A stretch of 64,000 bases of DNA from Bosea sp. Tri-49 (lineage in GTDB: Bacteria; Pseudomonadota; Alphaproteobacteria; Rhizobiales; Beijerinckiaceae), in NCBI RefSeq assembly GCF_003952665.1, contig NZ_CP017946.1, forward strand, positions 2,294,001 through 2,358,000. Reading direction: 5' to 3'. Position numbers and translations under genes: made by a program. Position 1 is the first letter of the stretch. Each line of letters starts with the position of its first letter. Positions 28,823 through 44,983 of this stretch are shown one piece after another. The notes beneath the pieces are model-generated. The model was not told the origin of the DNA. It made no database searches and worked only from the letters and a program-made list of their open reading frames with translations.

Positions 28823-29401
28823 ATGCTCCGCTTCTTCCGTTTGGCCCTGATCGCCGGCACGGCCGTCGCGGCCACGGCGACTGCCGCGATCGCCGAGATC
28901 GACCCGCTCACCCGCCAGCCGCTCGTCACCTATGTCGACCCCGCCAAGGCGCAGGCGACCGCGATCCCGCGCGAGGTTGTCTCCTTCAGCGGCACCTATC
29001 GCCCCGGCACGATCGTGATCAACACGAGCGAGCGCCGCCTCTATTTCGTGCTGCCCGATGGCAAGGCCGTCCGCTACGGCGTCGGCGTCGGCCGCCCCGG
29101 CTTCGACTGGGCCGGCTCGCAGACCGTCACCCGCAAGGCCGAGTGGCCGGGCTGGACCCCGCCGGCGCAGATGCTGAAGCGCCGCCCCGATCTGCCGCGC
29201 TTCATGCCCGGCGGCCCGGAGAACCCGCTCGGCGCCCGCGCCATGTATCTCGGCTCGACCCTTTACCGCATCCACGGCTCGAACGAGCCGGAGACGATCG
29301 GCCAGGCGGTCTCCTCCGGCTGCATCCGCATGCTGAACGAGGACGTGATCGACCTCTACGAGCGCGCCAAGGTCGGCACCCGCGTCGTCGTCGCCCGCTG
29401 A
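28823..29401 (+). CDS. L,D-transpeptidase (YkuD domain)
   Basis: A periplasmic enzyme that makes 3-3 peptidoglycan cross-links or attaches proteins to the cell wall. 192 residues; the signal peptide ends near AIAEI. The YkuD domain (about 55-190) starts IVINTSERRLYFVLPDGKAVRY and holds the catalytic motif HGSNEPETIGQAVSSGCIRM, with the His, Ser-Ser-Gly-Cys and Arg expected. ATG at 28823 is chosen for the signal peptide. Degenerate copies of this gene's 3' end plus its terminator recur at 30965-31083 and 32972-33112. Confidence 0.93.
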   Translation: MLRFFRLALIAGTAVAATATAAIAEIDPLTRQPLVTYVDPAKAQATAIPREVVSFSGTYRPGTIVINTSERRLYFVLPDGKAVRYGVGVGRPGFDWAGSQTVTRKAEWPGWTPPAQMLKRRPDLPRFMPGGPENPLGARAMYLGSTLYRIHGSNEPETIGQAVSSGCIRMLNEDVIDLYERAKVGTRVVVAR

Positions 29402-29425
29402 ACGAACGCTGCATCGCGCATTACG

Positions 29426-29452
29426 AAAGGCCGGCCTCGTGCCGGCCTTTTT
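29426..29452 (+). terminator. Intrinsic terminator of the L,D-transpeptidase gene
   Basis: AAAGGCCGGC (29426-29435) and GCCGGCCTTT (29441-29450) enclose CTCGT and run into further T residues. Two further copies of this terminator occur downstream with the gene-tail remnants. Confidence 0.92.
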
Positions 29453-29491
29453 GTTTGCTTCGACCCGCCCCGGCAACGAGGCGCAGGGCGA

Positions 29492-29674
29492 TCAGAACGG
29501 GGCCGTGAAATATACTCGGGCGGCCACGACACCGGCCAGCAGAAGCAGCAGGACGAGGCACTGCAACAGGTCCCGGGCGATCTCGCTGGACCGCGTATCG
29601 GACAGCTCGTTGCGAGGTCCGGTCCGATGCGCAGCCGCGCGCCGCTGTCTCTCCGACGCTTCATAAGTGGTCAT
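29492..29674 (-). CDS. Small single-pass membrane protein
   Basis: A 60-residue protein with a charged N-terminal half and one hydrophobic helix (LLQCLVLLLLLAGVVAARVYF, about 36-56) near the C-terminus. ATG at 29674 has an excellent GGAGGT eight bases upstream, so a longer frame to 29782 is rejected. No family recognised. It is the first gene inside the insert that lies between the real ldt tail and its first degenerate copy; the next gene (DapA-like) is on the same strand, 124 bases upstream of it. Confidence 0.6.
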   Translation of the reverse strand: MTTYEASERQRRAAAHRTGPRNELSDTRSSEIARDLLQCLVLLLLLAGVVAARVYFTAPF

Positions 29675-29797
29675 GGCGACCTCCGTATTTGACGGCGGAT
29701 GATCGACCAGGTCCGCGTAAGCTCGCGATGCCGGCCATGGCTCGGCGTCATCAAGCCCGCATAAGCGCGAGGACGCGCTCATGCGGGCTGTTGAAAG

Positions 29798-30718
29798 TCA
29801 GGCCGCTGAACGATGCTCGATCGCGTGACCATTGCTCGGTCGCGGCAGGTCATCGAGCGCGTATTTGAGTTCCTCGGCCAGCGAGGGCTGCGCCGCGACC
29901 AGAGGCAACCGGCAGACGGAGCCGACACCCGGATGCTGGAACGACAGGGCCAGCTTGACCGCGACCGGATCGGGCTCTCGGGACAGCAGGTCATGGAGCG
30001 GGATCAGCCGCCGCTGGAGGGTCTGGGCCTGCTCGAATGCACCGGCGCGGCAGGCTTCCCTGATCCGGCGCAGCAGGCGCGGCGCGAGATTGCCGATGCT
30101 GGTGACCGCGCCGCAGCCGCCCGCGACGACATAGGACGGGATGGTGTCGCTGGCCCCGGTTAGGCGCAGGAAGTGCCGGCTGCAGTTGCGCATGATGCGA
30201 TCGCAACGGGCGATATCGCCGCGCCGCTCGAGGATGCCGACGATGGTCGGATGTTCGGCCATCTCGGCCAGGGTTCCGGGTGCAAGGTCGATGGCGCAAC
30301 GATCGGGATCGTTGTCGATGATCACAGGTAGCGAGGTGACCTCCGCCACCGACAGGACGTGCCGGACAAGGCCGGCCTGCGTCGGCTTGCTGTAATAGGG
30401 CAGCCGCAGGAGAATGGCGCTCGCCCCTGCCGCAGTCGCCTCCCTGACTTCCGCGATGCTGTCCGCGGCCGAATACGACCCGGCGGCAGCCAGGATCGGA
30501 TAACCAGGCCCAGCCGCGGCGCGCGCAACCGTGACGAGCCGGATGCGTTCCTTGCCGGACAGCGTCGAATACTCGCCGCTGGCAGAGCCGAGCACGATGC
30601 CATCGGCACCCTCCTGGACCTGCCAGTCCACCAGCCGAGCCAGGCTTGGCTCGTCGAGGGCGCCGGCCCTGAAGGGCGTGACGAGCGCGGTGAACATCCC
30701 ATGAAGCCAGTGATCCAT
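29798..30718 (-). CDS. DapA-like (dihydrodipicolinate synthase family) protein with missing catalytic residues
   Basis: A 306-residue protein of the TIM-barrel N-acetylneuraminate lyase/DHDPS family: FTALVTPFRAGALDE, the GSASGEYSTLSGKER region, LPYYSKPTQAGLVRH. The Schiff-base Lys (normally in GIKE) is Leu163 in TIVGILERRGD, the catalytic Tyr of ILYNVPxR is Asp135 in VIIDNDPDR, and the conserved Thr pair of GTTGE is Ala/Ser. These three losses argue against aldolase chemistry. It may be a non-catalytic or redirected paralog. ATG at 30718 follows GAGGT; a 66-codon upstream extension is rejected. It sits in the insert behind ldt. Confidence 0.8.
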   Translation of the reverse strand: MDHWLHGMFTALVTPFRAGALDEPSLARLVDWQVQEGADGIVLGSASGEYSTLSGKERIRLVTVARAAAGPGYPILAAAGSYSAADSIAEVREATAAGASAILLRLPYYSKPTQAGLVRHVLSVAEVTSLPVIIDNDPDRCAIDLAPGTLAEMAEHPTIVGILERRGDIARCDRIMRNCSRHFLRLTGASDTIPSYVVAGGCGAVTSIGNLAPRLLRRIREACRAGAFEQAQTLQRRLIPLHDLLSREPDPVAVKLALSFQHPGVGSVCRLPLVAAQPSLAEELKYALDDLPRPSNGHAIEHRSAA

Positions 30719-30747
30719 ATCGACCTCGGCAGAGTGGATTGACGATG

Positions 30748-30782
30748 GAGGCGCAGCGGAGCGTTCTGCTCCGCTGCGCCTC
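30748..30782. repeat. Perfect 15-bp hairpin in the leader of the DapA-like gene
   Basis: GAGGCGCAGCGGAGC (30748-30762) is followed by GTTCT and its exact complement (30768-30782). It lies 30 bases upstream of the minus-strand start at 30718. There is no T-run on the minus strand, so it is not a standard terminator; a leader structure or protein-binding palindrome are options. Confidence 0.75.
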
Positions 30783-30964
30783 GGCCGAACTCGGGACGAC
30801 CGGTGAAACAGGGGCCGAGGGCCCTCAAACCCCACGGGGCGGTCGGGGTTCGATGGCGCCTCTGGTTCCAAACGTGCCCGAGCACGACGCCGGATCAAGG
30901 CTAGGCCGGTCGGCATAAGGGTTCGATGCGGATCGGGGCGAATAGTGTGAAGCCGGCATCAGGG

Positions 30965-31083
30965 CGGCGTGCCGAACGAGGATGTGATTAACCTCTGCGA
31001 GCGCTTCGTCTCCGTCGCGCGCTGAATGCCACTGCAGAAGGGTTACGAAAGGCCGGCGTGAAGCTGGCCTTTTTGTTTGCTTC
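30965..31083 (+). pseudogene. Degenerate copy A of the L,D-transpeptidase 3' end and terminator
   Basis: Reads AACGAGGATGTGATTAACCT then CTGCGAGCGC, then jumps (15-base in-frame deletion) to a tail ending GTCGCGCGCTGA. It encodes NEDVINLCERFVSVAR-stop against NEDVIDLYERAKVGTRVVVAR-stop in the intact gene. The terminator stem AAAGGCCGGC...GCTGGCCTTTTT follows (one pair becomes G-T) with the same TTTGCTTCG flank. It is a remnant, not a gene. Confidence 0.85.
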
Positions 31084-31095
31084 GATTCATGCCGG

Positions 31096-32031
31096 CTATG
31101 CGGCGGCCGAGCGCGATGAAGCCGCATTGTCGGTGCGACAGGCACGGGCGAACGCTCTCGGCGAGCAGCCGATCCGCCGGCGAAACGCCGTGCTGAAAGC
31201 ACTGGCGGATTCATAACCTATCTCCTCCGCGAGGCGCTCAAGCGATCTTGCCCCGCGGTTCAACGCGTCCTGCGCCAGAGCCATCCGCCAACGCGCCAAA
31301 TATTCGATCGGGGCGCAGCCAAGAGCCTCGGCAAACCGGTTCGCAAAGGACGATCGCGACATGCCGGCGAGGTCGGCGAGGTCGGCAACCGTCCATCCAG
31401 CCCGAACATCGGAGTGGAGTGCACGCAGGACCTTGGCCATGGCCGGGTCGCGCATCCCGGCCAGCAGCCCGGTCGGCCAAACTCCCTCCTCGACGCCATG
31501 CCAGCGCAGGCACTCGACCAGCATCACCTCCAGCAGGCGCTGCAGGATCATGTCCCGGCCCGCGCGATCGGCTGCGCACTCGTCCATGATCAAGCCGACG
31601 ATGCCGGAAATCCGGCCGGCTCCGCCGTCCACCGCGCGAATATGGATCATACGGGGTAGCAGCCCGAGCAGAAGCGGCGCGTTGACCTGCTCGACCTGAA
31701 AGGCACCGCCCAGCATTTCGACATCGGGCTCGCCATCGATCTCGCCATGCCGGGTAGCCTTTTCAGACGGCTCCACCAGCACAGGGGCGACGCCGGGCTC
31801 GCTGAACAACGCAAAGGCCGGCGTCGACGGCAGGAGCACGAAGTCACCGCGCTCGAGCCGCACCGGTTCGGCCATGTCGAGCGCAAGCCAGCATTGTCCG
31901 GACAGAACGATCGCGAAGCCCGGCTGCCCGTAGGCCGCATAGCGAACGCCCCAGGCGCCCCGCCCGGTTATCGGCTTCGACAAAGCGGCGTGAGGGCGCA
32001 GCAGGGCAACGATATCGCTGAGAGGGTCCAT
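31096..32031 (-). CDS. AraC-family regulator with N-terminal cupin (AraC_binding-like)
   Basis: A 311-residue transcription factor. Residues about 1-170 form a cupin sensor (WGVRYAAYGQPGFAIVLSGQCWLAL, then ERGDFVLLPSTPAFALF) of the kind linked to AraC regulators of short-chain dehydrogenase genes. Two C-terminal helix-turn-helices follow: WTVADLADLAGMSRSSFANRF and LAEEIGYESASAFSTAFRRRIG, with the closing motif GCSPRAF. It is divergent from an SDR gene; a 14-bp inverted repeat lies between them, so it probably controls that gene and itself. It lies in the second insert. Confidence 0.92.
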   Translation of the reverse strand: MDPLSDIVALLRPHAALSKPITGRGAWGVRYAAYGQPGFAIVLSGQCWLALDMAEPVRLERGDFVLLPSTPAFALFSEPGVAPVLVEPSEKATRHGEIDGEPDVEMLGGAFQVEQVNAPLLLGLLPRMIHIRAVDGGAGRISGIVGLIMDECAADRAGRDMILQRLLEVMLVECLRWHGVEEGVWPTGLLAGMRDPAMAKVLRALHSDVRAGWTVADLADLAGMSRSSFANRFAEALGCAPIEYLARWRMALAQDALNRGARSLERLAEEIGYESASAFSTAFRRRIGCSPRAFARACRTDNAASSRSAAA

Positions 32032-32033
32032 TT

Positions 32034-32077
32034 GGACGATCGATAATGTTTCATGGATCTACGATTATAGATCGTCC
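32034..32077. promoter_or_regulatory. Candidate operator between the AraC regulator and SDR genes
   Basis: GGACGATCGATAAT (32034-32047) and ATTATAGATCGTCC (32064-32077) are inverted repeats matching at 13 of 14 positions, separated by 16 bases. They lie in the 90-base divergent gap between the two starts. The spacing and position suit a dimeric regulator, most simply the adjacent AraC protein. Binding is inferred. Confidence 0.65.
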
Positions 32078-32121
32078 CGAAATTCTGTCTATTGGAGGCA
32101 GTGCGACCAACGGAGATCAGA

Positions 32122-32952
32122 ATGATCAAGACAGTCCTCATCACCGGCACCTCATCGGGATATGGCAAGGCGACAGCCGAGCTCTTCCTGCGGCGCGGCT
32201 GGAACGTGCTGGCGACGATGCGCCGCCCCGAATCGGCTTCGTTCGAGGTGAGCTCGGGCCGGTTGAAAGTGCTTCCTCTCGACGTCACCGACCAGAGCAG
32301 CATCGACGCGGCGATCGCCGAGGGCGTCGCCACCTTCGGTGCGATCGACGCATTGGTGAACAATGCCGGGATCGGCATGGCCTCAGTCGTCGAGGCGACG
32401 CCGGATGCGACGATCCGCGAGGTGTTCGAGACCAACACCTTCGGCGTTTTTGCGACCTGCCGCGCCATCATCCCGCAAATGCGCAAGCAAGGCGGTGGTC
32501 ATGTCGTCAACCTCACCTCGAGCACGACCATCGGGGTCATGCCGCTCGTGGCGATCTATGCCGCCAGTAAATGCGCCGTCGAGGGCTTCACGGAATCGCT
32601 GTCCTACGAGTTGGAGGGCTTCGGCATCAAAGCCAGGCTGGTGGAACCGGGCTACGCGCCGACCACGAGCTTCACCGCCAATGGCACCCCACGCATGCAG
32701 GGCCTTATTCCGCCCGATTACAGCAGCTTCGCCCAGTCCTGCTTCGGTAAGATGGCGAGCTATCCGACGCCGTACTGCACCGAGGAGGAGGTCGCCGAGG
32801 CCGTCTTTGCAGCCGCGACAGACGATGGTCGAAAGATCCGCTATCCGGCCGGCGCCGACACCAAGCTGCTGGCGGAACTGCGCTGGTCGACCTCGGAAGA
32901 TCATTACCTGCAGAAGATGCGCGAGATGTTCGGCCCGGAGCTCGCCGCTTAG
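32122..32952 (+). CDS. Short-chain dehydrogenase/reductase (SDR) family oxidoreductase
   Basis: A 276-residue NAD(P)-dependent enzyme. The cofactor loop reads TGTSSGYGKATAE, where the classical TGxxxGIG has Tyr in place of Ile. The NNAG motif is LVNNAGIGMAS. The catalytic triad is Ser in NLTSSTTIG and YxxxK in YAASKCAVEGF. The substrate is unknown. ATG at 32122 follows GGAGATCAG. It is controlled presumably by the divergent AraC regulator. Its stop lies 20 bases before the second ldt-tail remnant. Confidence 0.93.
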   Translation: MIKTVLITGTSSGYGKATAELFLRRGWNVLATMRRPESASFEVSSGRLKVLPLDVTDQSSIDAAIAEGVATFGAIDALVNNAGIGMASVVEATPDATIREVFETNTFGVFATCRAIIPQMRKQGGGHVVNLTSSTTIGVMPLVAIYAASKCAVEGFTESLSYELEGFGIKARLVEPGYAPTTSFTANGTPRMQGLIPPDYSSFAQSCFGKMASYPTPYCTEEEVAEAVFAAATDDGRKIRYPAGADTKLLAELRWSTSEDHYLQKMREMFGPELAA

Positions 32953-32971
32953 AGCCAGACGCACGCTGGAG

Positions 32972-33112
32972 CTGGTCCAGCGGTCTGCGCATGCTGAACA
33001 AGGACACAATCGGCCGCTACGAGCCTGCCGAGGGTCGCACCCGAGCGTCGTCGCCCGCTGATCCGCCCTATCGACCGCTGCGCTCAAGGCCGGCCTCGTG
33101 CCGGCCTTTTTC
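32972..33112 (+). pseudogene. Degenerate copy B of the L,D-transpeptidase 3' end and terminator
   Basis: CGCATGCTGAACAAGGACAC then AATCGGCCGCTACGAG aligns with the tail of the real gene (RMLNEDVIDLYER), here RMLNKDTIGRYEP. It then frameshifts so that GTCGTCGCCCGCTGA is read out of frame. The terminator AAGGCCGGCCTCGTGCCGGC plus CTTTTT at 33086-33111 is identical to the original. It is noncoding today and marks the right end of the second insert. Confidence 0.85.
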
Positions 33113-33162
33113 GTTCGCATAAGTTGTGGACCGCCACGGCGCGCCCGCTGCAATAAGGTGCG

Positions 33163-35010
33163 ATGTTCAGGTTCTTCGATTCGATTGTCGATCCGACCGC
33201 ATCGCCGCCGGGCCAGCCCCCCGGCGGTCTCCTATCGTTCTATTGGCATTTCGTGCGCCAGGCGAAGGGCCTGTTCGCTGCGCTGTTCCTGATCGGCTTC
33301 ACGCTCGCCGTGATCGAGGCGGTGGTGCCCTATCTGATCGGCCGCCTCGTCTCTGTACTGTCGTCGGTCGCGCGCGAACGGGTTTTCGACGCTGCCGGCC
33401 AGCTGCTTTTGATCATGGCGGCGATCGTGCTCGTGGTCCGGCCGCTCGGCACCATCCTGTTCCGCCTGCTCGTGAACCACTCGATCGCGGTCTCCTTCAC
33501 GACGCTGATCCACTGGCAGAACTACTGGCATGTCGTCCGCCAGCCGCTCGCCTTCTTCCAGGACGACTTCGCCGGGCGACTGGCCAACCGGGTGATGCAA
33601 ACGGCCCGACCACTGCGGGAAAGCATCGTCGCCTTCGTTCGAGCGGTCTGGCAGATACTCGTCTTCGGCGCGACCGCAATCGGTCTGCTCGGCACGCAGG
33701 ACCTTCGCCTGGCGGCGCCGATGCTGGTCTGGTTTCTGTTCTATGGGGGGCTCCTCGCCTACACGCTGCCGAAGGTGCAGGTCAGGTCTCGTGAGACCTC
33801 GGAGACGCGCTCGGCGATCTCCGGGAAAGTCGTCGACACGTTCACCAACATGATGACGGTCAAGCTGTTCGGGCGCCGAGCCGATGACGACGCCTATATT
33901 CGCGACGGATTTCTTCGCTTCCAGACCGCTTTCGCCCGCCAGCAGCAGCTCAATACCGTCTATGTGTTTTGCTTGGTCTGCCTCAACGCGGTCCTGCTGG
34001 TCACAACCGGCGGCATCGGCGTCTGGCTTTTCTCCGAGGGACGCGCCGACGCGGGGACGCTGACGACCGCCCTTCTCCTCACCACCCAGATCATTGCCAT
34101 GTCGGGCTGGGTGGCGTTCGAGATCGCAGGGATTTTCGAGAACATCGGCATCGTGCAGGAGGGCATGAAAACCATCGCGCAGCCGCTCAGCCTGCTCGAC
34201 AAGCCCGACGCGCGTCCGCTCGAGGCCCAGGATGGCGAGATCCGGTTCGAGAATCTGCATTTCCACTACAGCCAGCCGCACCGCGTGGTGGACGGGCTGT
34301 CTTTGACCATCGCCGCCGGTGAAAAGGTCGGTCTCGTCGGACGCTCCGGCGCGGGCAAGTCGACGCTCATCAATCTGCTGCTGCGCTTCTATGAGCCGCA
34401 ATCGGGCCGCATCCTGATCGACGGGCAGGACATCGCCCATGTCACCGAGGAATCGCTGCGCGCCCGGATCGCGGTGGTGGCTCAGGACTCTTCACTTTTG
34501 CATCGCTCCATCGGCGAGAACATCCTCTACGCCCGCCAGGAGGCCGACGAAGGCATGATGCGCGATGCCGCCCGAAAGGCGCAGGCAGATGCCTTCATCG
34601 ACAAGCTGGTGGATGGCAAGGGACGCCAGGGCTTCGAAGCCTTTGTCGGCGAGCGCGGCGTCAAGCTCTCCGGCGGGCAGCGCCAGCGGATCGCCATCGC
34701 CCGGGTGATCCTGAAGGATGCCCCGATCCTCCTGCTCGACGAGGCGACGTCGTCCCTCGACTCACAGGTCGAGGCCGCGATCCAGGAAGCGCTCTCGGAG
34801 CTGATGCGCGGCAGGACGGTTATCGCCATCGCCCATCGGCTCTCCACGCTTCAGCTCATGGACCGCCTGGTGGTGATGGACGCCGGACGCATCGTCGAAC
34901 AGGGCACCCATGCGGACCTGCTCGCCGCCGGCGGGCTTTATGCCGACCTCTGGGCGCATCAATCCGGCGGCTTTATCGTGCCGCAACGCCCTCAGCGCGG
35001 GGGAAGATAA
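33163..35010 (+). CDS. ABC exporter half-transporter (fused permease and ATPase)
   Basis: A 615-residue type IV (exporter-fold) ABC protein. The N-terminal 6-helix membrane domain is at about 25-330. The ATPase domain at about 350-600 has Walker A VGRSGAGKST, signature LSGGQ in GVKLSGGQRQRIAIAR, Walker B ILLLDEATS and the switch His in AIAHRLSTL. It probably acts as a homodimer exporting lipids or hydrophobic substrates; the substrate is unknown. Preceded closely by the second ldt-tail remnant, so it is the first native gene after the two inserts. Confidence 0.93.
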   Translation: MFRFFDSIVDPTASPPGQPPGGLLSFYWHFVRQAKGLFAALFLIGFTLAVIEAVVPYLIGRLVSVLSSVARERVFDAAGQLLLIMAAIVLVVRPLGTILFRLLVNHSIAVSFTTLIHWQNYWHVVRQPLAFFQDDFAGRLANRVMQTARPLRESIVAFVRAVWQILVFGATAIGLLGTQDLRLAAPMLVWFLFYGGLLAYTLPKVQVRSRETSETRSAISGKVVDTFTNMMTVKLFGRRADDDAYIRDGFLRFQTAFARQQQLNTVYVFCLVCLNAVLLVTTGGIGVWLFSEGRADAGTLTTALLLTTQIIAMSGWVAFEIAGIFENIGIVQEGMKTIAQPLSLLDKPDARPLEAQDGEIRFENLHFHYSQPHRVVDGLSLTIAAGEKVGLVGRSGAGKSTLINLLLRFYEPQSGRILIDGQDIAHVTEESLRARIAVVAQDSSLLHRSIGENILYARQEADEGMMRDAARKAQADAFIDKLVDGKGRQGFEAFVGERGVKLSGGQRQRIAIARVILKDAPILLLDEATSSLDSQVEAAIQEALSELMRGRTVIAIAHRLSTLQLMDRLVVMDAGRIVEQGTHADLLAAGGLYADLWAHQSGGFIVPQRPQRGGR

Positions 35011-35028
35011 GCAGAGCCTGCTGCGCGC

Positions 35029-35397
35029 TCAGCCTCTCCTGGCCCGCTCCCGCGACAGCCCCTTCGCTGCGAGATCGTCGAGATAGGCCTGCAGCTTCGC
35101 CTCGCCATCGCGGCCAAGCTCGCGCAGATAATCCCAGCCATAGATGCCGGTGTCGTGCATGTCGTCGAAGGTCAGGCGGACGGCGTAATGGCCGACCGGC
35201 TCGACCTTGATGATCTCGACCTCGCGCTTGCCCGGCACGGTCTGCTTCTGCGTCGGGCCATGGCCCTGGACCTCGGCCGAGGGGCTCTCGACCCGCAGCA
35301 ATTCGGCGGCGAGTGCATGACTCTCGCCGCTCTCGAAGGTGACATGCAGGGTGCGGCGATCCTTCGACAGGCGGATCTCGCTCGGCCAATCTGACAT
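35029..35397 (-). CDS. DUF971 protein (gamma-butyrobetaine hydroxylase N-like)
   Basis: A 122-residue protein matching DUF971, the small beta domain otherwise found at the N-terminus of gamma-butyrobetaine hydroxylases: [39 protein letters not shown] and [14 protein letters not shown]. Related proteins act in Fe-S or cofactor metabolism in some bacteria, but the role is unsettled. It is convergent with the ABC transporter gene and divergent from moaA; its neighbourhood with molybdenum cofactor genes is recurrent in proteobacteria from memory. Confidence 0.88.
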
Positions 35398-35538
35398 CTT
35401 CGTGTTTCTCCAGAACGGCTTGCGACCATCAGCCTGCTTGACCGCGGGCTTGCGGCCGACAATGCTGCCTTCCTATATCAGAGCAACGGCAGGCGCACTG
35501 CGCCGCAAGACCGCGATCGCCCGAGGATTTCAGCCACC

Positions 35539-36567
35539 GTGCTGCATGACCCCATCAGGCCCTTGATGCGTGCGCCGCTGACCGATCCGTTCGGCCGCGA
35601 CATCTCCTATCTGCGCATCTCGGTGACGGATCGCTGCGATTTCCGCTGCGTCTACTGCATGTCCGAGGACATGGCCTTCCTGCCGAAGCGTGACTTGCTG
35701 ACGCTCGAGGAGGTCGACCGCGTCGCCACCGCCTTCGTTTCGCGCGGCACGCGCAAGCTGCGCATCACCGGCGGCGAGCCGCTGGTCAGGCGCGACATCA
35801 TGAACCTGTTCCGCTCGCTCTCGCGCCACCTCGCCTCGGGCGCGCTCGACGAATTGACCGTGACCACCAACGGCTCGCAGCTTTCCCGCTATGCGCAGGA
35901 GCTGGCCGATTGCGGGGTGCGCCGTGTCAACGTGTCGATGGATACACTCGATCCCGAGAAATTCCGCAAGATCACGCGCTGGGGCGATCTCTCCAAGGTG
36001 CTCGCCGGCATCGAGGCGGCGCGCGCGGCGGGCCTGCGCGTCAAGATCAATGCGGTCGCGCTGAAAGGCGTCAACGAGGACGAGATCGAGGGGCTGATGC
36101 ACTGGGCCCATGGGCTCGGCATGGACCTGACGCTGATCGAGGTGATGCCGCTCGGCGATATCGAGCCGGCGCGGCTAGACCAGTTCCTGCCGCTCTCGAT
36201 GGTGCGGGCCAAGCTGATGGACCGCTACACGCTCGACGACGATCCGTACCGGACCGGCGGGCCGGCGCGCTATGTCCGGGTCCGCGAGACGGACGGCCTC
36301 ATCGGCTTCATCACGCCGATGACCCATAATTTCTGCGAAAGCTGCAACCGCGTGCGCCTGACCTGCACCGGCACGCTCTATATGTGCCTCGGCCAAGAGG
36401 ACGCCGCCGACCTGCGCGCGCCGATCCGGGCTTCAAGCGACGACGCCCTGCTCTACCGGGCGATGGAAGAGGCGATCTCGCGCAAGCCCAAGGGCCACGA
36501 CTTCGTCATCGACCGGCGCCAGCCACGCGCCGCCGTCGGCCGGCACATGAGCGTGACCGGCGGCTGA
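35539..36567 (+). CDS. moaA: GTP 3',8-cyclase (molybdenum cofactor biosynthesis)
   Basis: A radical SAM enzyme catalysing the first step of molybdopterin synthesis from GTP. 342 residues. The N-terminal radical-SAM cluster CDFRCVYCM and SAM-binding ITGGEPLVR are present. A C-terminal 4Fe-4S site has [13 protein letters not shown], and the tail ends GRHMSVTGG, the two-Gly C-terminus needed for MoaC partnership. The start is taken as GTG at 35539 (GAGGA upstream); ATG at 35566 is possible. A degenerate copy of its 3' end lies at 39845-39900. Confidence 0.95.
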
Positions 36568-36590
36568 GACGGCGCGGGCCTCGACCAAGC

Positions 36591-37232
36591 TCAGCGAGCC
36601 CGCAATCCGCGTACGATATTCGTCGCCCGCCTGAGAGCCGTCACGGCAGCGCCCGCCGCGATGAGCCAGAGCGCGACGACCAGCACTTCGTTCTGGCCTC
36701 GCCACAGCGGCTCCAGCAGTGACAGGAGCGCGGCCGCGGTGATCGTCGCCATGCGGTGCTGCTTGGCCATCGGACCGGAGAAGTCGGCCGGCAGACCGCA
36801 ATTGCGGCCGAGCTCGCGGGTGTAGGCCGTCAGCACGGCAAGACCGGCAGCCGCCCACCCCAGGGCCGGTGTGCCGATGCCGTAACCGACGCCGGTGAGG
36901 ATCAGGATATCGGCGATCCGATCGGGGAACTCGTTCCAGAACGGCCCGTCCGCAGCCTGCTTGCCGCCCTCGATCGCGACCATTCCGTCGAAGAGATTGC
37001 AGAGCAACCTGAGCTGACAGAACAGGGCCGCGGCAAGCAGCAGGGCAGCGCGCGGCCCGGAAGCCGCCGTGCCCGCGAGCCAGAAGGCGGCGCCGGCGAA
37101 GGCCGCCATCACCATGCTCGCTATCGAGATCTGGTTCGGCGTGATGCCGCTGGCACTCAGCCGGCGCGCAATCGCCCTGGCCCAGCCTGTATCGCGGCTC
37201 GAGAGCGGCCGCCGATCGTCACTCTGCGCCAT
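36591..37232 (-). CDS. CDP-alcohol phosphatidyltransferase-like membrane protein with altered motif
   Basis: A 213-residue protein with about five hydrophobic helices in the CDP-alcohol transferase layout. The family motif DxxDGxxAR(x8)GxxxDxxxD appears here as N79-LF-D82-G83-MV-A86-I87, eight residues, then G96-PFW-N100-EFP-D104: first and third Asp are Asn and the Arg is Ile. Activity is therefore uncertain. With CdsA and PlsC partners it suggests synthesis of an unusual phospholipid; the pairing recalls E. coli ynbA-ynbB. It overlaps the next upstream gene by 14 bases. In the insert behind moaA. Confidence 0.75.
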   Translation of the reverse strand: MAQSDDRRPLSSRDTGWARAIARRLSASGITPNQISIASMVMAAFAGAAFWLAGTAASGPRAALLLAAALFCQLRLLCNLFDGMVAIEGGKQAADGPFWNEFPDRIADILILTGVGYGIGTPALGWAAAGLAVLTAYTRELGRNCGLPADFSGPMAKQHRMATITAAALLSLLEPLWRGQNEVLVVALWLIAAGAAVTALRRATNIVRGLRAR

Positions 37233-37626
37233 GGTTCATCGCCTTCCTGCTCCGCCACAGCGAGAGATTGTAGAGCGCCGCATAGCTGGTCGCGACGGTC
37301 AGCGGGACGGCGATCGTCCTGCCGATCTCGGGCGTGCCGCCGATGGTGTGGATGAGCGTCAGCACGCTCGCGGAGACGAATCCTGCGATCACCGGCGGCG
37401 CCAGCAGCGCGGCCAGGCCGGTGAAGCGGCTGGCGAGATACTCGATGCCCCCTTTCAGCAGCAGTGTGATGAGAGCGGACAACGTGCCCTGAATCAGCCC
37501 GGCGAGAAGCGGCGCCGGCATCGAGTGGATGCGGTTGGCGAAAGCCGCCCAGCTGCCCATGGCGATGAAGGCAAAGGCGACATGCACAATGCTGCTTCGC
37601 ATCAGGCGCGCGAGCGGCGCGCTCAC
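37219..37626 (-). CDS. Small four-helix membrane protein of the phospholipid cluster
   Basis: A 135-residue protein with four predicted helices (about 12-30, 40-60, 70-95 and 100-122). No named domain recognised. The start is GTG at 37626, forming a GTGA overlap with the CdsA stop, so it is translated as part of the operon. Context (PlsC, CdsA, CDP-alcohol transferase) suggests a flippase, regulator or assembly role in lipid synthesis, without direct evidence. Confidence 0.65.
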   Translation of the reverse strand: MSAPLARLMRSSIVHVAFAFIAMGSWAAFANRIHSMPAPLLAGLIQGTLSALITLLLKGGIEYLASRFTGLAALLAPPVIAGFVSASVLTLIHTIGGTPEIGRTIAVPLTVATSYAALYNLSLWRSRKAMNHGAE

Positions 37627-38573
37627 GTGCTCGACCAGCCGTATCGGACGAGGTGGAAGAAGATCGGGGCGGAGAACACCACCGAATCGAGTCGGTCGAG
37701 GAAGCCGCCATGGCCGGCGATCAGATGACCCCAATCCTTGATGCCGCGATCGCGCTTGATCGCCGACATGACGAGCCCGCCGAAGAAGCCCATCACGACA
37801 ATGACCAGCGCCAGGAAAGCCGCCTGCAGCGGCGTGAATGGCGTCATCCAGGACAAGGCGGCCCCGACCGCCGTTGCGCTGAGCGCGCCGCCGACGAAGC
37901 CCTCGACCGTCTTGGACGGCGACAGCCTGGGCGCGATCTTGGTCCGGCCGAGCAGCTTGCCCCAGACATACTGCAACACATCGCTCATCTGCACGACGAT
38001 GACGAGAAAGGCGATCAGCAGGACGTTGCGCCCCTGATAGCCGGGGATGTCGAGGCTCAGCAGCGCCGGCACATGCGAGGTACAAAAGACGCAGATCATC
38101 AGCGCCCACTGCACTTCGGCGATGCGCACCAGAAAATGCTCGGTGTCGCCGCGCGCCGTCGCGATGATCGGCATGAGCAGGAAGGCATAGACGGGAATGA
38201 AGATCGAGTAGAGGCCGTACCACTCGATCCAGATCAAGTAATATTGCACCGGCAGCACGATGAAGAAGCCGGCGGCCAACGCCCAATGGTCGGCGCGCCG
38301 CGTGTTCGTCAGCGTGATGAACTCACGCAAGGCTGCGAAGGAGCAGAAGGCGAAGAGCAGCGTCACGCCGGTCTTGCCGCCGATCAGCGCCAGGCCCATC
38401 AGCACGATCATGATCCACCAGGCGCGGATGCGATCGTTCAGGTTCTCGACCACGGCATTCGAGCCATCCGGCGAAAGCCGGCGCTGCAGCACGTAGCCGA
38501 CAGCGGAAGCCAGGACCAGCACGGCAAGCAGACAGGCCAGCACGGCGACGAGATCAGGATGCGGCATCGTCAT
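37623..38573 (-). CDS. Phosphatidate cytidylyltransferase (CdsA family)
   Basis: Makes CDP-diacylglycerol from phosphatidate and CTP at the inner membrane. 316 residues with about eight helices. The signature is clear near the C-terminus: SPSKTVEGFVGG and, later, SAIKRDRGIKDWGHLIAGHG followed by GFLDRLDS. ATG at 38573 overlaps the PlsC stop in an ATGA junction; a longer frame upstream is the shadow of PlsC. As an accessory copy within an insert it is probably not the housekeeping CdsA. It feeds the CDP-alcohol transferase-like gene two places downstream. Confidence 0.92.
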   Translation of the reverse strand: MTMPHPDLVAVLACLLAVLVLASAVGYVLQRRLSPDGSNAVVENLNDRIRAWWIMIVLMGLALIGGKTGVTLLFAFCSFAALREFITLTNTRRADHWALAAGFFIVLPVQYYLIWIEWYGLYSIFIPVYAFLLMPIIATARGDTEHFLVRIAEVQWALMICVFCTSHVPALLSLDIPGYQGRNVLLIAFLVIVVQMSDVLQYVWGKLLGRTKIAPRLSPSKTVEGFVGGALSATAVGAALSWMTPFTPLQAAFLALVIVVMGFFGGLVMSAIKRDRGIKDWGHLIAGHGGFLDRLDSVVFSAPIFFHLVRYGWSST

Positions 38574-39268
38574 GGCACGCTCGCCTTGGGTGACAGGGCC
38601 AGCAGCGCCGCCTCCGCCCTGGCCAGGAATTCCTGCTTCGTCTCGGTGTCGGCGATGGCGATGGGAGCGCCGAAGGTGACGGTGCAGATGAGAGGTACCG
38701 GCACGAACTCGCCCTTCGGCATGACCCGGTTGAGATTGTCGATCCACACCGGCACGAGCGTAACGTTCGGCCGCGCCTGCGCCAGATGGAACAGCCCGCT
38801 CTTGAACGGCAGCAGCCGTGCATCCGTGGTGTTGCGCGTCCCTTCCGGGAACACAATGAGAGAGGAGCCGGCATCGAGCGCCTCCGTCATCTGGGCGACC
38901 GGGTCACTCGTTCGGCTCTCACGGTCCCGGTCGATCAGGACGGCGTTGAAGACATCGCGGCCGATGAAACGCCGAAGGCTGCTCTTCAGCCAGTAATCGC
39001 TTCCGGCGACCGGCCGGGTCGCGAACCGCATGCGGCGCGGCAATACGGTCCAGATCAGGACGAAATCGCCGTGGCTGGCATGATTGGCGAAATAAATCCG
39101 CTGCTCACCGGTCGGCGCGACGCCGTCCCATCGTCCGCGGACCGCCGTGATGAAGCGGGCAAAGACCACAATGAGCGTACCAGCCAAGCTGATCCCTGCT
39201 TCGCGCATCCCCATACCCGATTGCCGCCCTTGCGATGACGTAACGTTCATCTCGAACGCTGTCGACAT
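38570..39268 (-). CDS. PlsC-type lysophospholipid acyltransferase
   Basis: A 232-residue (maximum) acyltransferase of the LPLAT family that acylates lysophosphatidate or a related lipid. HxxxxD motif is NHASHGD; the glycerol-binding motif is FPEGTR; a short N-terminal hydrophobic segment anchors it. Several in-frame starts are possible (39268, 39250, 39214, 39208); ATG at 39214 has GGGCGG upstream and is a good alternative. First gene of the four-gene minus-strand cluster that supplies CDP-lipids; divergent from the cyclic-nucleotide-binding gene. Confidence 0.86.
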   Translation of the reverse strand: MSTAFEMNVTSSQGRQSGMGMREAGISLAGTLIVVFARFITAVRGRWDGVAPTGEQRIYFANHASHGDFVLIWTVLPRRMRFATRPVAGSDYWLKSSLRRFIGRDVFNAVLIDRDRESRTSDPVAQMTEALDAGSSLIVFPEGTRNTTDARLLPFKSGLFHLAQARPNVTLVPVWIDNLNRVMPKGEFVPVPLICTVTFGAPIAIADTETKQEFLARAEAALLALSPKASVP

Positions 39269-39436
39269 TGCAGCGGTCTGGGGCGAATTCGAAAGCTGGT
39301 CGCGGGCTTCCGCTCACCGCCTTTTGGGGGCCTCCAAAGACCTCGTATCCACCGGCCGCGGCCTGCTGGATCGATTGGAGCTCCCTGGTTCCTGCGCTAC
39401 AGTGAGCCGCCACCGACCAGAGAGCGAGTTCGAGCG

Positions 39437-39835
39437 ATGAACGAGCATTCCGCCGCGGCTAGGCCTGCCCTTGCGCCCATGGATTTCCGCCAGCTCGCCC
39501 GCGGTCTGGGAACGGTGATCAACTATGCCGCCGGGGATGTCGTCTTCCGTGAGGGCGACGAGCCCGCCCATGCCTATATTGTTCTCACCGGCAGAATCGA
39601 AGTCAGCAGCCGCGGAAAACTGATCGAAGAGGTCAGTGAAGGGCGAGCCTTCGGCATTGTTTCGCTGATCGACAGGAAGCCGCGATCCGCTACGGCAAAA
39701 GCGATAGCACCCTCCGAAATTGCCTTGGTCGATGCAAAGCAATTCCGGTTCATGGTCGAAACGACGCCGAATTTCATCTGGTACGTGCTGTCAGAAGTTG
39801 TCGACCGACTGCGAGCAACAAATTCTGCTTTGTGA
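39437..39835 (+). CDS. Cyclic nucleotide-binding domain protein
   Basis: A 132-residue stand-alone CAP_ED/cNMP-binding domain: INYAAGDVVFREGDEPAHAY, VLTGRIEVSSRGKLI, the phosphate-cassette-like region EGRAFGIVSLIDRKPRSATAKA and a C-terminal helix ending VDRLRATNSAL. The consensus cassette GExALL....R.A reads RAFGIVSLIDRKPRSATA, so ligand binding may differ. No DNA-binding domain, so it would act through a partner. Codon use is visibly more A/T rich than nearby core genes. It is divergent from the phospholipid cluster in the insert behind moaA. Confidence 0.82.
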   Translation: MNEHSAAARPALAPMDFRQLARGLGTVINYAAGDVVFREGDEPAHAYIVLTGRIEVSSRGKLIEEVSEGRAFGIVSLIDRKPRSATAKAIAPSEIALVDAKQFRFMVETTPNFIWYVLSEVVDRLRATNSAL

Positions 39836-39844
39836 ACGCGGTCA

Positions 39845-39900
39845 GCGGTCGCCGCCGGCGCGCGCCGCGGTCGGGCCGCATATGAGTGTAACCGGCGGCG
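39845..39900 (+). pseudogene. Degenerate copy of the moaA 3' end
   Basis: CGCGCCGCGGTCGGGCCGCA then TATGAGTGTAACCGGCGGC encodes RAAVGPHMSVTGG against [13 protein letters not shown] of the real moaA tail. The stop is lost (GGA for TGA). Five of six pre-stop differences within that stretch are synonymous (for example CAC to CAT, AGC to AGT, GTG to GTA), so the copy diverged as coding sequence before it became a fragment. It marks the right end of the insert between moaA and nrdB. Confidence 0.82.
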
Positions 39901-40024
39901 GAGGGCGGGCGAGCCCGAGACTGACGAAATCGGCATTGTTTCCCTGAAACCAGGCCATTGCGCTTCGGATGTTTCGGGATGGCTGATCGCCTGTCAGGCA
40001 ACCCGGCGTTCGGTTGCCGTCGTA

Positions 40025-41146
40025 TCACTCCCAACTCAAGGCGCCGCCGTTCTGGTACTCGATGACGCGGGTCTCGAAGAAGTTCTTCTCCTTCTTCAGG
40101 TCCATCGCTTCGCTCATCCACGGGAACGGGTTCTCGGTCTCGGCGAAGACAGGGGTGAGGCCGAGCTGGGCGCAGCGGCGGTTGGCGATGAAGTGCATGT
40201 ACTGCTCGCACAGCGCCGCGTTGAGCCCGAGGAAGCCCCTAGGCATCGTGTCACGACCATAGGCGGCTTCGAGCTCGGCCGCATCGCGGATCATGCCGCG
40301 CACCTCGTCCTGGAAGGCCTTGGTCCAGAGATGCGGGTTCTCGATCTTGATCTGGTTGATCACGTCGATGCCGAAGTTCAGATGGATCGATTCATCGCGC
40401 AGGATGTACTGATACTGCTCGGCGATGCCGACCATCTTGTTGCGCCGGCCGAGCGAGAGGATCTGGGCGAAGCCGGTGTAGAACCACATGCCTTCGAAGA
40501 TCGCATAGAAGGTGATCAGGTCGCGCAGCAAGGCCTGGTCGTTCTCGGGCGTCCCGGTCTGGAAGTCGGGATCCTCGATGCTCTGCGTGTGCTTCAGCGC
40601 CCAGGCCGCCTTGTCGGTGATCGAGGGCACCTCGCGGTACATGTTGAACAATTCGCCCTCGTCGAGGCCGAGACTCTCGACGATGTACTGGAAGGTGTGG
40701 GTATGGATCGCCTCCTCGAAGGCCTGGCGCAGCAGGTACTGCCGGCATTCGGGATTGGTCAGGTGGCGGTAGATCGCCAGCACGATGTTGTTGGCGACGA
40801 GAGATTCGGATGCCGCGAAGAAGCCGAGATTGCGCTTGAGCATGCGCCGCTCATCCTCGGTCAACCCGTCCTTGGACTTCCACAGCGCGATGTCGGCCTG
40901 CATCGAGACCTCGGTCGGCATCCAATGGTTGTTGCAGCCGGCGAGGTACTTCTCCCAGGCCCATTTGTACTTGAGCGGCAACAACTGATTCACGTCGGCG
41001 CGGCAGTTGATCATCCGCTTCTCGTCGACGCTGACCCGCCCGCCCTTGCGGTCGATTTCGCCGAGGCCGGTGGCGTCGGCGGCGGGTGCGTTCAGGATGG
41101 CGGGATTGGCTGGGTTCGCCGGCTTGGTGTCGGACCAGTCGAGCAT
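40025..41146 (-). CDS. nrdB: Ribonucleotide reductase beta subunit, class Ic-like
   Basis: A 373-residue metal-cofactor subunit of ribonucleotide reductase. Ligand pattern: E114 (in [10 protein letters not shown]), E145-A-I-H148, then a C-terminal Glu and RDESIHLNF (E-x-x-H). The position of the radical Tyr (seven after E145) is Phe152 in EAIHTHTF, and the first ligand is Glu rather than Asp. These are the marks of class Ic (Mn/Fe) enzymes such as that of Chlamydia. It lies downstream of nrdA, separated by 159 bases that hold a repeat element. A B12 riboswitch sits upstream of nrdA. Confidence 0.93.
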
Positions 41147-41175
41147 GGGGTGAGTTCCATTTTGAAACTAAAAGG

Positions 41176-41280
41176 CGTCATGCTCGGGCTTGATCCGAGC
41201 ATCTCATGCCGAATGAGGCTCCTGCGCCTCGTCCTGCCGGAGATTCTCGGGTCTGCGCTTCGCTTCGCCCGAGAATGACG
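41176..41280. repeat. REP-like element between nrdA and nrdB
   Basis: Two hairpins: ATGCTCGG (41180-41187) with CCGAGCAT (41195-41202), and ATTCTCGGG (41243-41251) with CCCGAGAAT (41268-41276). The whole is bounded by GTCAT and ATGAC. Typical of dispersed alphaproteobacterial intergenic elements. It interrupts the nrdA-nrdB transcript and could alter relative expression. Confidence 0.8.
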
Positions 41281-41305
41281 CGGGAGGTGGAATGACGGCA
41301 GGGCC

Positions 41306-44212: not shown

Positions 44213-44221
44213 CGGCATCAA

Positions 44222-44237
44222 CCCCAAGATGTTGAGG
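44222..44237 (-). promoter_or_regulatory. Hairpin over the nrdA ribosome binding site
   Basis: On the minus strand, CCTCAA (44237-44232) pairs with TTGGGG (44227-44222), one G-T pair, with loop CATC. The GGGG is the likely Shine-Dalgarno for ATG at 44212. The equivalent position in the metE leader also pairs its GGGG, with different bases. Confidence 0.6.
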
Positions 44238-44341
44238 GCAAAGGCCGAGCGGTTGCGTCGAGAAGGCGCGCGGCAACCCAAGGCCGCGACCTGCCAAGCG
44301 CACCACCGGGACACCCCGCCCGAGGACGTAAAACTAGGGTC

Positions 44342-44506
44342 GCGGCAGGTCTCCTGGCTCGCGGGTCGCAGCTCTCGCCCGTCTTCCCAAGGCCTTGCGG
44401 CCTCAGTGACTTACATGGACGCGAACTCACCGCTGACAGTTGCGGGGGCAGCGCCGGTTTCCCACCGGCTTCCCTCTTAGCTCTCGATCTTGCGATTCGA
44501 GAGACC
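44342..44506 (-). ncRNA. Cobalamin riboswitch upstream of nrdA
   Basis: On the minus strand the classical B12 aptamer elements are in order: GCTAAGAGGGAAGCCGGTG, the paired CCGGT...ACCGG, GCGCTGCCCCCGCAACTGTC, GTAAGTCACTGAGGCC (B12 box region) and GAGCCAGGAGACCTGCC. About 130 bases separate it from the nrdA start. It should switch off the B12-independent reductase when adenosylcobalamin is present, as known for nrdABS in Streptomyces. Implies a B12-dependent class II reductase (NrdJ) elsewhere. Confidence 0.92.
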
Positions 44507-44682
44507 ATCGACCACCAGATTTAGTAGTCTCTGCGCTGACGCTGTCAATTGATCGTGCGTGACTTGTCTCTCGCATGTGGAAAGCGAGGATATCTCCAAC
44601 AGCCCCCAAAAAACATGGAGACATAAAGATGTCTTTATATCTCGATTGACGTCTACTCTCGGATCGGCATACTGGCACGGTC

Positions 44683-44856
44683 GAGGTTCTCCGGCGCGGC
44701 TTGCCGCATCGGAGCTAAGAGGGAAGCCGGTGAAGTGCCGGCGCTGCCCCCGCAACTGTAAGCGGCGAGCCGCTGTCCAATCGAAGCCACTGGGACCGAC
44801 AAGGTCGCGGGAAGGCCGGACAGCTGCCCTGACCCGTGAGCCAGGAGACCTGCCCC
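44683..44856 (+). ncRNA. Cobalamin riboswitch upstream of metE
   Basis: Plus-strand B12 aptamer: GGAGCTAAGAGGGAAGCCGG, paired GCCGG...CCGGC, GCTGCCCCCGCAACTGTAAG, GAAGCCACTGGGACC (B12 box) and GAGCCAGGAGACCTGCCCC. It precedes metE by about 127 bases. It should repress the cobalamin-independent methionine synthase when cobalamin is present, allowing MetH to take over. This leader and the nrdA leader are inverted duplicates. Confidence 0.95.
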
Positions 44857-44866
44857 GACAACATGA

Positions 44867-44897
44867 ACGTCCTCGGGCGGGGTGTCCCGGTGGTGCG
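44867..44897 (+). repeat. 31-base identical segment shared by the metE and nrdA leaders
   Basis: The bases ACGTCCTCGGGCGGGGTGTC and 11 more after them are identical at 44867-44897 (plus) and 44329-44299 (minus). The segment lies right after each aptamer and contains short self-complementary runs (CGGG...CCCG, GGG...CCC), so it is likely part of the expression platform. Confidence 0.85.
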
Positions 44898-44960
44898 GTT
44901 GCGGATCCGCGCCGATTTTCCGTCGCCCGGATTCTCACACGCGTCCGCTCTGGCCTTTGC

Positions 44961-44975
44961 CCCCATTTTATGGGG
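44961..44975 (+). promoter_or_regulatory. Hairpin over the metE ribosome binding site
   Basis: CCCCAT (44961-44966) pairs with ATGGGG (44970-44975) around a TTT loop. The GGGG is the probable Shine-Dalgarno for ATG at 44984. Sequestration would give translational control by the upstream riboswitch. Confidence 0.65.
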
Positions 44976-44983
44976 TTAAGCCT

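What the first reader, a model, noticed from the sequence alone, without database searches (positions are those of the whole stretch)
29401..39905. Three accessory inserts, each ending in a decayed copy of the upstream core gene's own 3' tail
Two conserved genes in this stretch are followed by accessory DNA that ends in a degenerate, same-orientation copy of their own 3' ends: ldt at 30965-31083 and again at 32972-33112, and moaA at 39845-39900. The order is always intact gene, insert, tail copy. This is the classical layout of integration at a gene's 3' end, where the incoming DNA restores the gene and the displaced tail decays. No integrase is visible, so homology-facilitated capture of donor DNA carrying a diverged tail is the alternative. 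The moaA copy differs mostly at synonymous positions, implying it came from a functional, diverged allele. Two unrelated genes showing the same scar in 11 kb suggests a recurrent gene-capture mechanism.
Basis: partly seen in the sequence, partly recalled or inferred. Interest (0 to 1): 0.75.

Follow-up and report, generated by a model that had tools for sequence, protein, structure and literature searches.

The report
Duplicated gene tails behind inserted genes
In a soil bacterium of the Bosea group, blocks of extra genes sit behind ordinary housekeeping genes and several of them end in a worn second copy of the housekeeping gene's own tail, a scar that most likely records gene addition by homologous recombination rather than by a dedicated mobile element.

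Summary
The tail copies are real and near the stated coordinates: ldt at 30967-31105 and 32976-33118, moaA at 39841-39915; the window's moaA copy alone is weak but recurs longer in three relatives. In 60 fetched loci of the genus (Bosea by contig match) ldt > < DUF971 moaA > is the frame and its gaps vary. In G038 the ldt copy and all to its right are collinear with the uninterrupted ldt-lipocalin-DUF971 order of G050: the copy is the displaced native tail. A scan of 1.24 Mb of the own genome found five same-strand downstream tail copies (four genes) against one upstream and one opposite. At one of them, an acyl-CoA dehydrogenase, relatives carry serial inserts whose copies mostly start at one position. 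No tyrosine-integrase match lies within 68 kb of ldt. Best reading: additive single-crossover or homology-facilitated illegitimate integration of alternative cargo at hotspots. Tandem duplication with loss is not excluded. New variant of a known kind.

The parts
28823..29401 (+). ldt, YkuD-type L,D-transpeptidase, intact core gene
   Evidence: Pfam PF03734 E 2.6e-23; 67 of 67 genus genomes have a DNA match, paralogues included
29237..29483 (+). segment of ldt 3' end, terminator and flank (about -164 to +82) that is duplicated downstream
   Evidence: 5' limit from the G022/G038 copies, 3' limit from window copy 1
29484..30966 (-). insert 1: small ORF without Pfam match (29492-29782) and DHDPS-family gene (29798-30718)
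   Evidence: Pfam PF00701; 25 of 67 genomes have a match, at ldt in G000, G022, G038, G065 only
30967..31105 (+). ldt tail copy 1 with terminator; about 90 bp shorter inside than in G022/G038
31106..32952 (.). insert 2: AraC/cupin regulator (31096-32031, -; its end overlaps copy 1 by 10 bp) and SDR oxidoreductase (32092-32952, +)
   Evidence: Pfam; the same pair lies between ldt and DUF971 without a detected ldt copy in G013 and G024
32976..33118 (+). ldt tail copy 2 with terminator; weaker similarity from about 32955
   Evidence: terminator 27 of 28 bases
33163..35010 (+). insert 3: ABC transporter gene, no tail copy behind it
   Evidence: Pfam; 10 of 67 genomes, no close match in 60 other ldt loci
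35029..35397 (-). DUF971-type gene (Pfam GBBH-like_N), conserved right border of the ldt gap
   Evidence: Pfam PF06155; 60 of 60 fetched loci
35539..36567 (+). moaA, intact core gene
   Evidence: TIGR02666 above cut-off
36327..36580 (+). segment of moaA 3' end that is duplicated downstream (approximate limits, partly by eye)
   Evidence: G013 copy starts about -240, window copy ends +13
36591..39835 (.). insert 4: CDP-alcohol phosphatidyltransferase-like, protein without match, CTP_transf_1, PlsC-type acyltransferase (all -), cNMP-binding gene (+)
   Evidence: at moaA in 13 of 13 clade members, matches at other places in 18 further genomes, some partial
39841..39915 (+). moaA tail copy
40025..47329 (.). 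accessory DNA 5: nrdB, nrdA (-) and metE (+), no tail copy found behind it
   Evidence: Pfam; homology to clade relatives resumes at 47392-47470

Best explanation
Each scar marks an addition of DNA behind a core gene. Incoming DNA from a related strain carried the 3' part of the same gene followed by different cargo. It recombined with the resident gene on the homologous side, and its other end was closed either by circle (Campbell-type) integration or by illegitimate joining (homology-facilitated illegitimate recombination, HFIR). The result is intact gene, new cargo, then the resident's displaced gene tail followed by the resident's old neighbour. Freed from coding, the displaced tail decays, while its terminator may be kept. 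Repetition at the same gene stacks cargo with the newest block next to the gene. Shown: the copies, their direction, the displaced native order at ldt, recurrence, no tyrosine integrase near. Inferred: donor within the genus, RecA dependence, single-crossover or HFIR chemistry.
For: Filled versus empty order: G038 ldt-DHDPS-ldt'-lipocalin-DUF971 against G050 ldt-lipocalin-DUF971; the stretch from ldt -171 to DUF971 is collinear (71%), and the DNA beyond the copy alone scores 308.5 against a maximum of 43.5 in 100 shuffles. Alternative cargo sits directly behind the same core gene in other lineages, as donors should look: AraC-SDR between ldt and DUF971 in G013 and G024 with no ldt copy found, a five-gene block (k11-k15) behind acd in G030 and G013, the DUF3108 gene (k2) behind acd in G065, G050, G066, G038, G022, G025. 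ldt-DUF971 gaps run from under 100 bp to 9.8 kb over the fetched loci, a hotspot. The acd locus stacks units in series in G012 and G057. Nearest tyrosine-integrase match about 68 kb away. Bias: tail copies same strand/downstream 5 against 2 in all other tail classes. Behind eight copies tested, the cargo is not repeated. Matches of 6-8 nt at the junctions (CGCGCC at ldt, GCGACGCG at acd) are compatible with microhomology (by eye).
Against: The 'empty' G050 order could be an excision product of ldt x ldt' recombination, so polarity is not proven. The intact tails show no foreign signature: the window's moaA tail has clade members as its 11 best matches; the ldt tail is too conserved to tell (98% in clade, 97% outside). 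Copies in different acd units begin at one place (profile position 82-85 in 5 of the 7 copies longer than 150 bp) and share about 280 bp upstream; independent illegitimate joins should differ, so unit-to-unit recombination or duplication must be added. Head-copy controls in other genera are not empty. Transformation or conjugation in these bacteria was not tested. The TctC-gene case (2011765-2012739) does not fit: the gene with the copied tail is absent from six outgroups searched.
Confidence: 0.6

Rival explanations
1. Tandem duplication and loss: a segment from inside the core gene to beyond its neighbour was duplicated in place, and the second copy of the neighbour was then deleted, leaving gene, neighbour, gene tail.
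For: It needs no foreign DNA. Repeated k2-end-acd' segments in G050 (546 bp, 89%), G057 (about 415 and 250 bp) and G012 (484 bp) show that local duplication does occur at the acd locus. The TctC-gene case fits it better than insertion.
Against: In eight copies tested (four moaA, four ldt) no second cargo copy was found in the 675-1500 bp behind the tail. The moaA cargo has matches at other places in 18 further genomes and so probably had to arrive at moaA first. The DNA behind the ldt copy in G038 is the neighbour of ldt in G050.
Confidence: 0.2
2. Site-specific integration at gene 3' ends by an element whose recombinase acts in trans or was lost, as in SCCmec or icd/guaA/dusA islands.
For: Layout intact gene, insert, tail. 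One common copy start and a conserved region of about 280 bp before it in several acd units.
Against: No recombinase in the cargo scanned (all window cargo ORFs and the own acd insert; only a sample in relatives). Seven tyrosine-integrase matches in the genome, none within about 68 kb of ldt; serine recombinases not searched. The conserved acd end region occurs nowhere else in the 1.24 Mb scanned and is the upstream region of one cargo gene. Copies in four target genes start at different places and no shared core was seen by eye.
Confidence: 0.12
3. Chance similarity or conserved unrelated sequence such as a shared terminator or repeat.
For: Part of the ldt match is a terminator hairpin, and short terminator matches occur elsewhere. 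The window's moaA copy is short and not significant in one search.
Against: In relatives the coding parts match over 171 bp (ldt) and about 220 bp (moaA), E 9e-44 to 7e-62; the controls in the own genome are nearly empty.
Confidence: 0.02

Closest known systems
Homology-facilitated illegitimate recombination (HFIR; Acinetobacter, Pseudomonas stutzeri, Streptococcus pneumoniae, E. coli conjugation)
   Same: One homologous anchor, one non-homologous join, foreign DNA added beside the anchor (PMC3240628: search listing and start of abstract; PMC2884548: passages).
   Different: Known from laboratory crosses; here inferred from old scars at housekeeping genes, and RecA dependence is untested.
T6SS immunity-gene arrays of Vibrio cholerae formed by sequential displacement (PMC5361080, passages read)
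   Same: New module inserted next to a constant upstream part, old 3' end and old cargo shifted downstream, repeated to form arrays; the authors propose HFIR.
   Different: There the displaced part belongs to an effector gene. Here the anchor is a constant housekeeping gene that stays intact and the cargo is metabolic or regulatory.
Rhs C-terminal displacement (named in passages of PMC5361080; otherwise recalled)
   Same: Strings of orphaned 3' regions behind an intact gene.
   Different: The displaced tips encode toxin domains (recalled); here the tails have no evident use apart from a terminator.
HGT hotspots without mobility genes, with recombination at flanking core genes (PMC5635113, passages read)
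   Same: Variable cargo between conserved genes without mobility genes; homologous recombination of flanking core genes proposed.
   Different: That model is replacement by double crossover. The tail copies look like the physical trace of addition.
SCCmec/orfX and islands in icd, guaA, dusA 3' ends (recalled; a dusA-island paper is in the listing)
   Same: Gene restored, tail repeated at the far end, tandem elements stack.
   Different: They use serine or tyrosine recombinases and short att cores (recalled); none found here in what was searched.

Membership tests
HFIR product | Insert joined through homology to the recipient on one side | tested here: met
   ldt, moaA and acd intact and continuous on the left; gene tails on both sides of the cargo
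HFIR product | Other end joined at a few matching bases, positions differing between events | tested here: inconclusive
   6-8 nt matches at ldt and acd by eye; different start in each gene, but one start for several acd units
HFIR product | RecA dependence, occurs on DNA uptake | not testable with these tools
   needs a recA mutant cross
Sequential-displacement array (T6SS/Rhs type) | Several cargo blocks in series, separated by remnants of the anchor gene's 3' end | tested here: met
   two copies at ldt in the window, two or three at acd in G012 and G057
Sequential-displacement array (T6SS/Rhs type) | Displaced part is a toxin tip or effector with immunity gene | tested here: not met
   anchor genes are L,D-transpeptidase, MoaA, acyl-CoA dehydrogenase; own cargo metabolic, regulatory or without match
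Site-specific integrative element at a gene 3' end | Recombinase in the insert | tested here: not met
   none in cargo scanned; nearest tyrosine-integrase match about 68 kb from ldt
Site-specific integrative element at a gene 3' end | Short identical att core shared by insertions | tested here: inconclusive
   common start GCGACGCG in acd units but no core seen shared between ldt, moaA and acd
HGT hotspot without mobility genes | Variable gene content between the same conserved genes, no mobility genes | tested here: inconclusive
   variable content met: ldt-DUF971 gap under 100 bp to 9.8 kb; absence of mobility genes tested for the window's cargo and a sample of relatives' cargo only

The most novel reading that the evidence does not exclude
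The duplicated gene tails are more than scars. Each unit, cargo plus displaced tail, is a cassette that plain homologous recombination can cut out as a circle and re-insert behind any copy of that core gene, so core genes work as integrase-free capture platforms with integron-like stacking. The acd locus points this way: three kinds of cargo (k2; k11-k15; k16-k17) end in the same segment of about 280 bp plus acd tail, and two of the blocks occur in opposite order in different strains.
Probability: 0.25. Interest if true: 0.72.

Novelty: new variant of a known kind. Interest (0 to 1): 0.5.

Why it matters
In one survey half of the hotspots of horizontal transfer showed no mobile element and 27% no integrase or transposase at all (PMC5635113, passages), and how cargo enters them is mostly inferred from statistics. 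A gene-tail copy is a physical record of one addition event: it gives the insertion point, the order of arrival and the displaced neighbour, and can be searched for in any genome. It also suggests that displacement arrays are not confined to toxin or effector genes.

Tried and rejected
Rejected: chance (controls); a dispersed repeat or common element end (the acd end region is found once in 1.24 Mb of the own genome, and the ends of the ldt and moaA inserts hit only the same inserts in relatives and cargo homologues; the end of the TctC-locus insert had one weak further hit, E 2e-6); ABC gene and nrdB as native neighbours. Constant length of the duplicated segment: about 247-255 bp for the first event at ldt, acd and moaA, but about 250-546 bp for later ones, left as unexplained. 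A duplicated DUF971 tail was sought and not found: best non-self hit E 0.0017, lying antisense in ldt. A rate special to this genus is only partly shown. In 60 loci around moaA from other genera (1.13 Mb, 815 called ORFs; 60 of the 69 loci L241-L309, the others being too short) tail copies at E <= 1e-6 were same/downstream 4, same/upstream 2, opposite 3, with one strong same/downstream case (L278, DctP-type gene, 83%, E 4e-30); head copies were same/upstream 5, same/downstream 3, opposite 3, several of them from one repeat in L278. In 48 Bosea loci outside the clade (0.71 Mb) tail copies were same/downstream 0, same/upstream 1 (E 5e-44), opposite 1, head copies 0. So the scar is uncommon but not confined to this clade. 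In G065 an ldt copy is visible by eye only and is not significant by profile or pairwise score. An E. coli stretch was fetched as a possible control and not used; loci L205-L208 were fetched and not analysed further, and L129-L148 were used only in the search. Gene calling in my scripts was a simple codon-usage caller, so gene counts are approximate and genes were missed (the cNMP-binding and AraC genes in the window locus). Six of the 67 genomes (G019, G021, G032, G045, G047, G056) were not fetched at the ldt locus; the loci fetched were chosen from the listed ldt and moaA matches, so the frame is tested on 61 of 67.
Full report
1. Observation. The window lies in a 6.45-Mb genome (G000, C1:2294001-2358000). 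Its genus is inferred to be Bosea: relatives G012, G022 and G065 have contigs of the same lengths as NZ_LMJW01000016.1 (Bosea sp. Root483D1), NZ_NBDP01000030.1 (Bosea sp. Tri-44) and PNLY01000001.1 (a MAG labelled Methylobacterium). The repeats were found by an unguided repeat search and by directed searches. ldt copy 1 is 30967-31105, ldt copy 2 32976-33118, moaA copy 39841-39915. The moaA copy is the weakest: a whole-genome search at E <= 0.01 did not list it and its profile E-value is 0.014, while a sensitive pairwise search gives 3e-10 in its locus and 1.5e-8 over 840 kb.

2. Relatives. 67 genomes of the genus, the own one included, were searched for ldt, the ABC gene and moaA, and 60 ldt-moaA loci of relatives were fetched. 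DUF971 lies behind ldt, convergent, in 60 of 60, with moaA behind it in 58 of 60 (two pieces lack it). The ldt-DUF971 gap goes from under 100 bp to 9.8 kb, with many kinds of content: DHDPS-type gene, AraC-SDR, amidase-AtzH pair, TctAB transporter, DUF87/HerA-like helicase, lipocalin, metallo-beta-lactamase-superfamily gene plus LysR. It is a hotspot. Behind moaA there are several alternatives before an MCP/PilZ gene (c3) that most loci have. The ABC gene is in 10 of 67 genomes; no close match lies in a relative's ldt locus. A tree of ldt and moaA without their last 200 and 250 bases and of whole DUF971 (59 tips) puts the window in a clade of 13 with support 1.00.

3. Copies in relatives. Profile searches over the 61 loci found ldt copies in the window (two), G022 and G038, and moaA copies in G013, G030 and G066 and, at E 0.014, in the window; none at E < 0.01 in the 48 loci outside the clade. 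The G022 and G038 ldt copies are longer and better kept (-171 to +45/+53, 86%), and the insert's right end just before them is the same as in the window, so they most likely stem from one event and the window copy has lost about 90 bp inside. The G013 moaA copy runs from -223 to -5 at 78%.

4. The displaced tail. G050 has ldt-lipocalin-DUF971, G038 has ldt-DHDPS-ldt'-lipocalin-DUF971, and the stretch from ldt -171 to DUF971 aligns between G050's intact gene and G038's copy (71%; 69% with G004). In G004 the first 155 bp behind ldt match the left end of the DHDPS insert and then comes the lipocalin gene, as after a deletion. The moaA cargo (CDP-alcohol phosphatidyltransferase-like, a protein without match, CTP_transf_1, PlsC type) is at moaA in all 13 clade members and has matches at other places, some partial, in 18 further genomes, so it probably came to moaA in the clade's ancestor.

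5. Behind the moaA copy, homology to the clade's relatives resumes only at 47392-47470. nrdB, nrdA and metE (Pfam) in between are absent from this place in the 60 fetched loci as far as nrdB shows; in four clade genomes searched, nrdB lies elsewhere in two (G057, G013) and gave no match in the list for two (G066, G022). The variable stretch spans about 29.4-47.4 kb, with DUF971 and moaA as the conserved genes inside.

6. Genome-wide. I scanned 1.24 Mb of the own genome (1075 called ORFs). At E <= 1e-6 and with paralogues removed, tail copies were same strand and downstream 5 times (four genes: ldt twice, moaA, an acyl-CoA dehydrogenase, a TctC-type gene), same/upstream once, opposite/upstream once, opposite/downstream never; head copies gave 2, 0, 1 and 0. 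A first scan (840 kb, 719 ORFs, E <= 1e-4) gave the same five, one weak further same/downstream hit (59% identity) and three weak opposite/upstream ones. No further downstream case turned up in the last 400 kb.

7. The acd locus. Behind the acyl-CoA dehydrogenase (G000 C1:2156410-2157681) the own genome has a three-gene insert and a tail copy at +2211; G012 has copies at +6437 and +11540, G057 at +55, +4481 and +9636, G050 at +4282. Of the seven copies longer than 150 bp, five begin at profile position 82-85 of 335 (the own one at 62, one of G004 at 131). The start lies at the octamer GCGACGCG, which is at -246 of the gene in four of six genomes looked at and at -240 in two. About 280 bp before the copies are shared among units with different cargo: 14 near-complete occurrences in nine acd loci, up to three in G057, and only the own one in 1.24 Mb. 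That segment is the upstream region of a DUF3108 gene (k2); in G050 the repeated part reaches into k2 (546 bp, 89%). Two blocks, k2 and the five-gene k11-k15 block (ABC transporter and threonine-synthase-like genes by appearance, not tested), stand in the order k2, k11-15 in G012 and G057 and k11-15, k2 in G030 and G013. G066, G022, G038, G025, G065 and G050 lack the two-gene part 233-234 and join acd directly to the k2 region.

8. Mechanism. Three facts favour addition by homology: alternative cargo sits directly behind the same gene in sister lineages (AraC-SDR at ldt in G013 and G024; k11-15 and k2 at acd); at ldt the copy continues into the neighbour that another strain has directly behind the gene; and no tyrosine integrase is near. 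Tandem duplication with loss is not excluded because G050 could be an excision product, though no second cargo copy was found behind eight copies tested. A site-specific element has only the common start in acd for it. The test of allele differences is indecisive: third-position mismatches are 38 of 79 (moaA), 82 of 186 (acd), 18 of 52 (ldt); at third positions the copy's base is one seen in other intact tails in 43 acd cases where about 15 were expected for random change, 32 against 24 for moaA and 14 against 9.5 for ldt (the copies are not independent). Either the two tails were different alleles from the start, or the intact gene changed later.

9. Terminator. The first three of nine terminator-like sites listed in 29300-40100 (5.7 expected) are the ldt terminator and its two copies. 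Copy 2 keeps 27 of 28 terminator bases against 84 of 108 coding bases, G038 27 of 28 against 146 of 166; copy 1 23 of 28 against 48 of 60, and G022's is damaged (17 of 21 against 154 of 163). Selection for termination of the inserted operons is possible; four copies, two each way, do not prove it.

10. Known kinds. The model matches HFIR and the sequential displacement proposed for Vibrio T6SS arrays and Rhs loci (PMC5361080 and PMC2884548, passages read; PMC3240628, listing and start of abstract) and the hotspot model of PMC5635113 (passages read). Merodiploidy by transformation (PMC3784515, passages read) shows that uptake can create partial duplications. New here is the use of constant housekeeping genes as anchors and the cassette-like acd series. 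In the listings of my searches I recognised no report of the same scar at housekeeping genes, but I saw titles and abstract starts and read passages of four papers only.

Noticed in passing
window 41175-41281; also G000 C1:2156256-2156390: A dispersed intergenic repeat of about 108 bp; searches that scored at most 40 candidates a genome listed some 30-40 matches in each of four relatives.
   Followed up: no
G000 C1:2011765-2014065 (L154): A TctC-type gene whose last 80 bp recur behind the next gene; six outgroups lack the TctC gene, so here the gene with the copied tail is itself the newcomer.
   Followed up: partly
L278:13610-15937: A Beijerinckiaceae MAG has a DctP-type gene with a same-strand tail copy 1.3 kb downstream (83%), the same layout in another genome.
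   Followed up: no
window 39284-39303 and 39437-39835: The cNMP-binding gene seems to have landed inside the moaA tail copy, splitting it (by eye); the gene is at the same place in G022, G057, G065 and G050.
   Followed up: partly
L069:6457-11000 in ldt orientation (G066): G066 has other ORFs at the place where the window has nrdBA-metE, behind its moaA copy.
   Followed up: no
ldt, acd and moaA loci: The first duplicated segment is about 247-255 bp at all three genes (limits partly by eye); later ones vary.
   Followed up: partly
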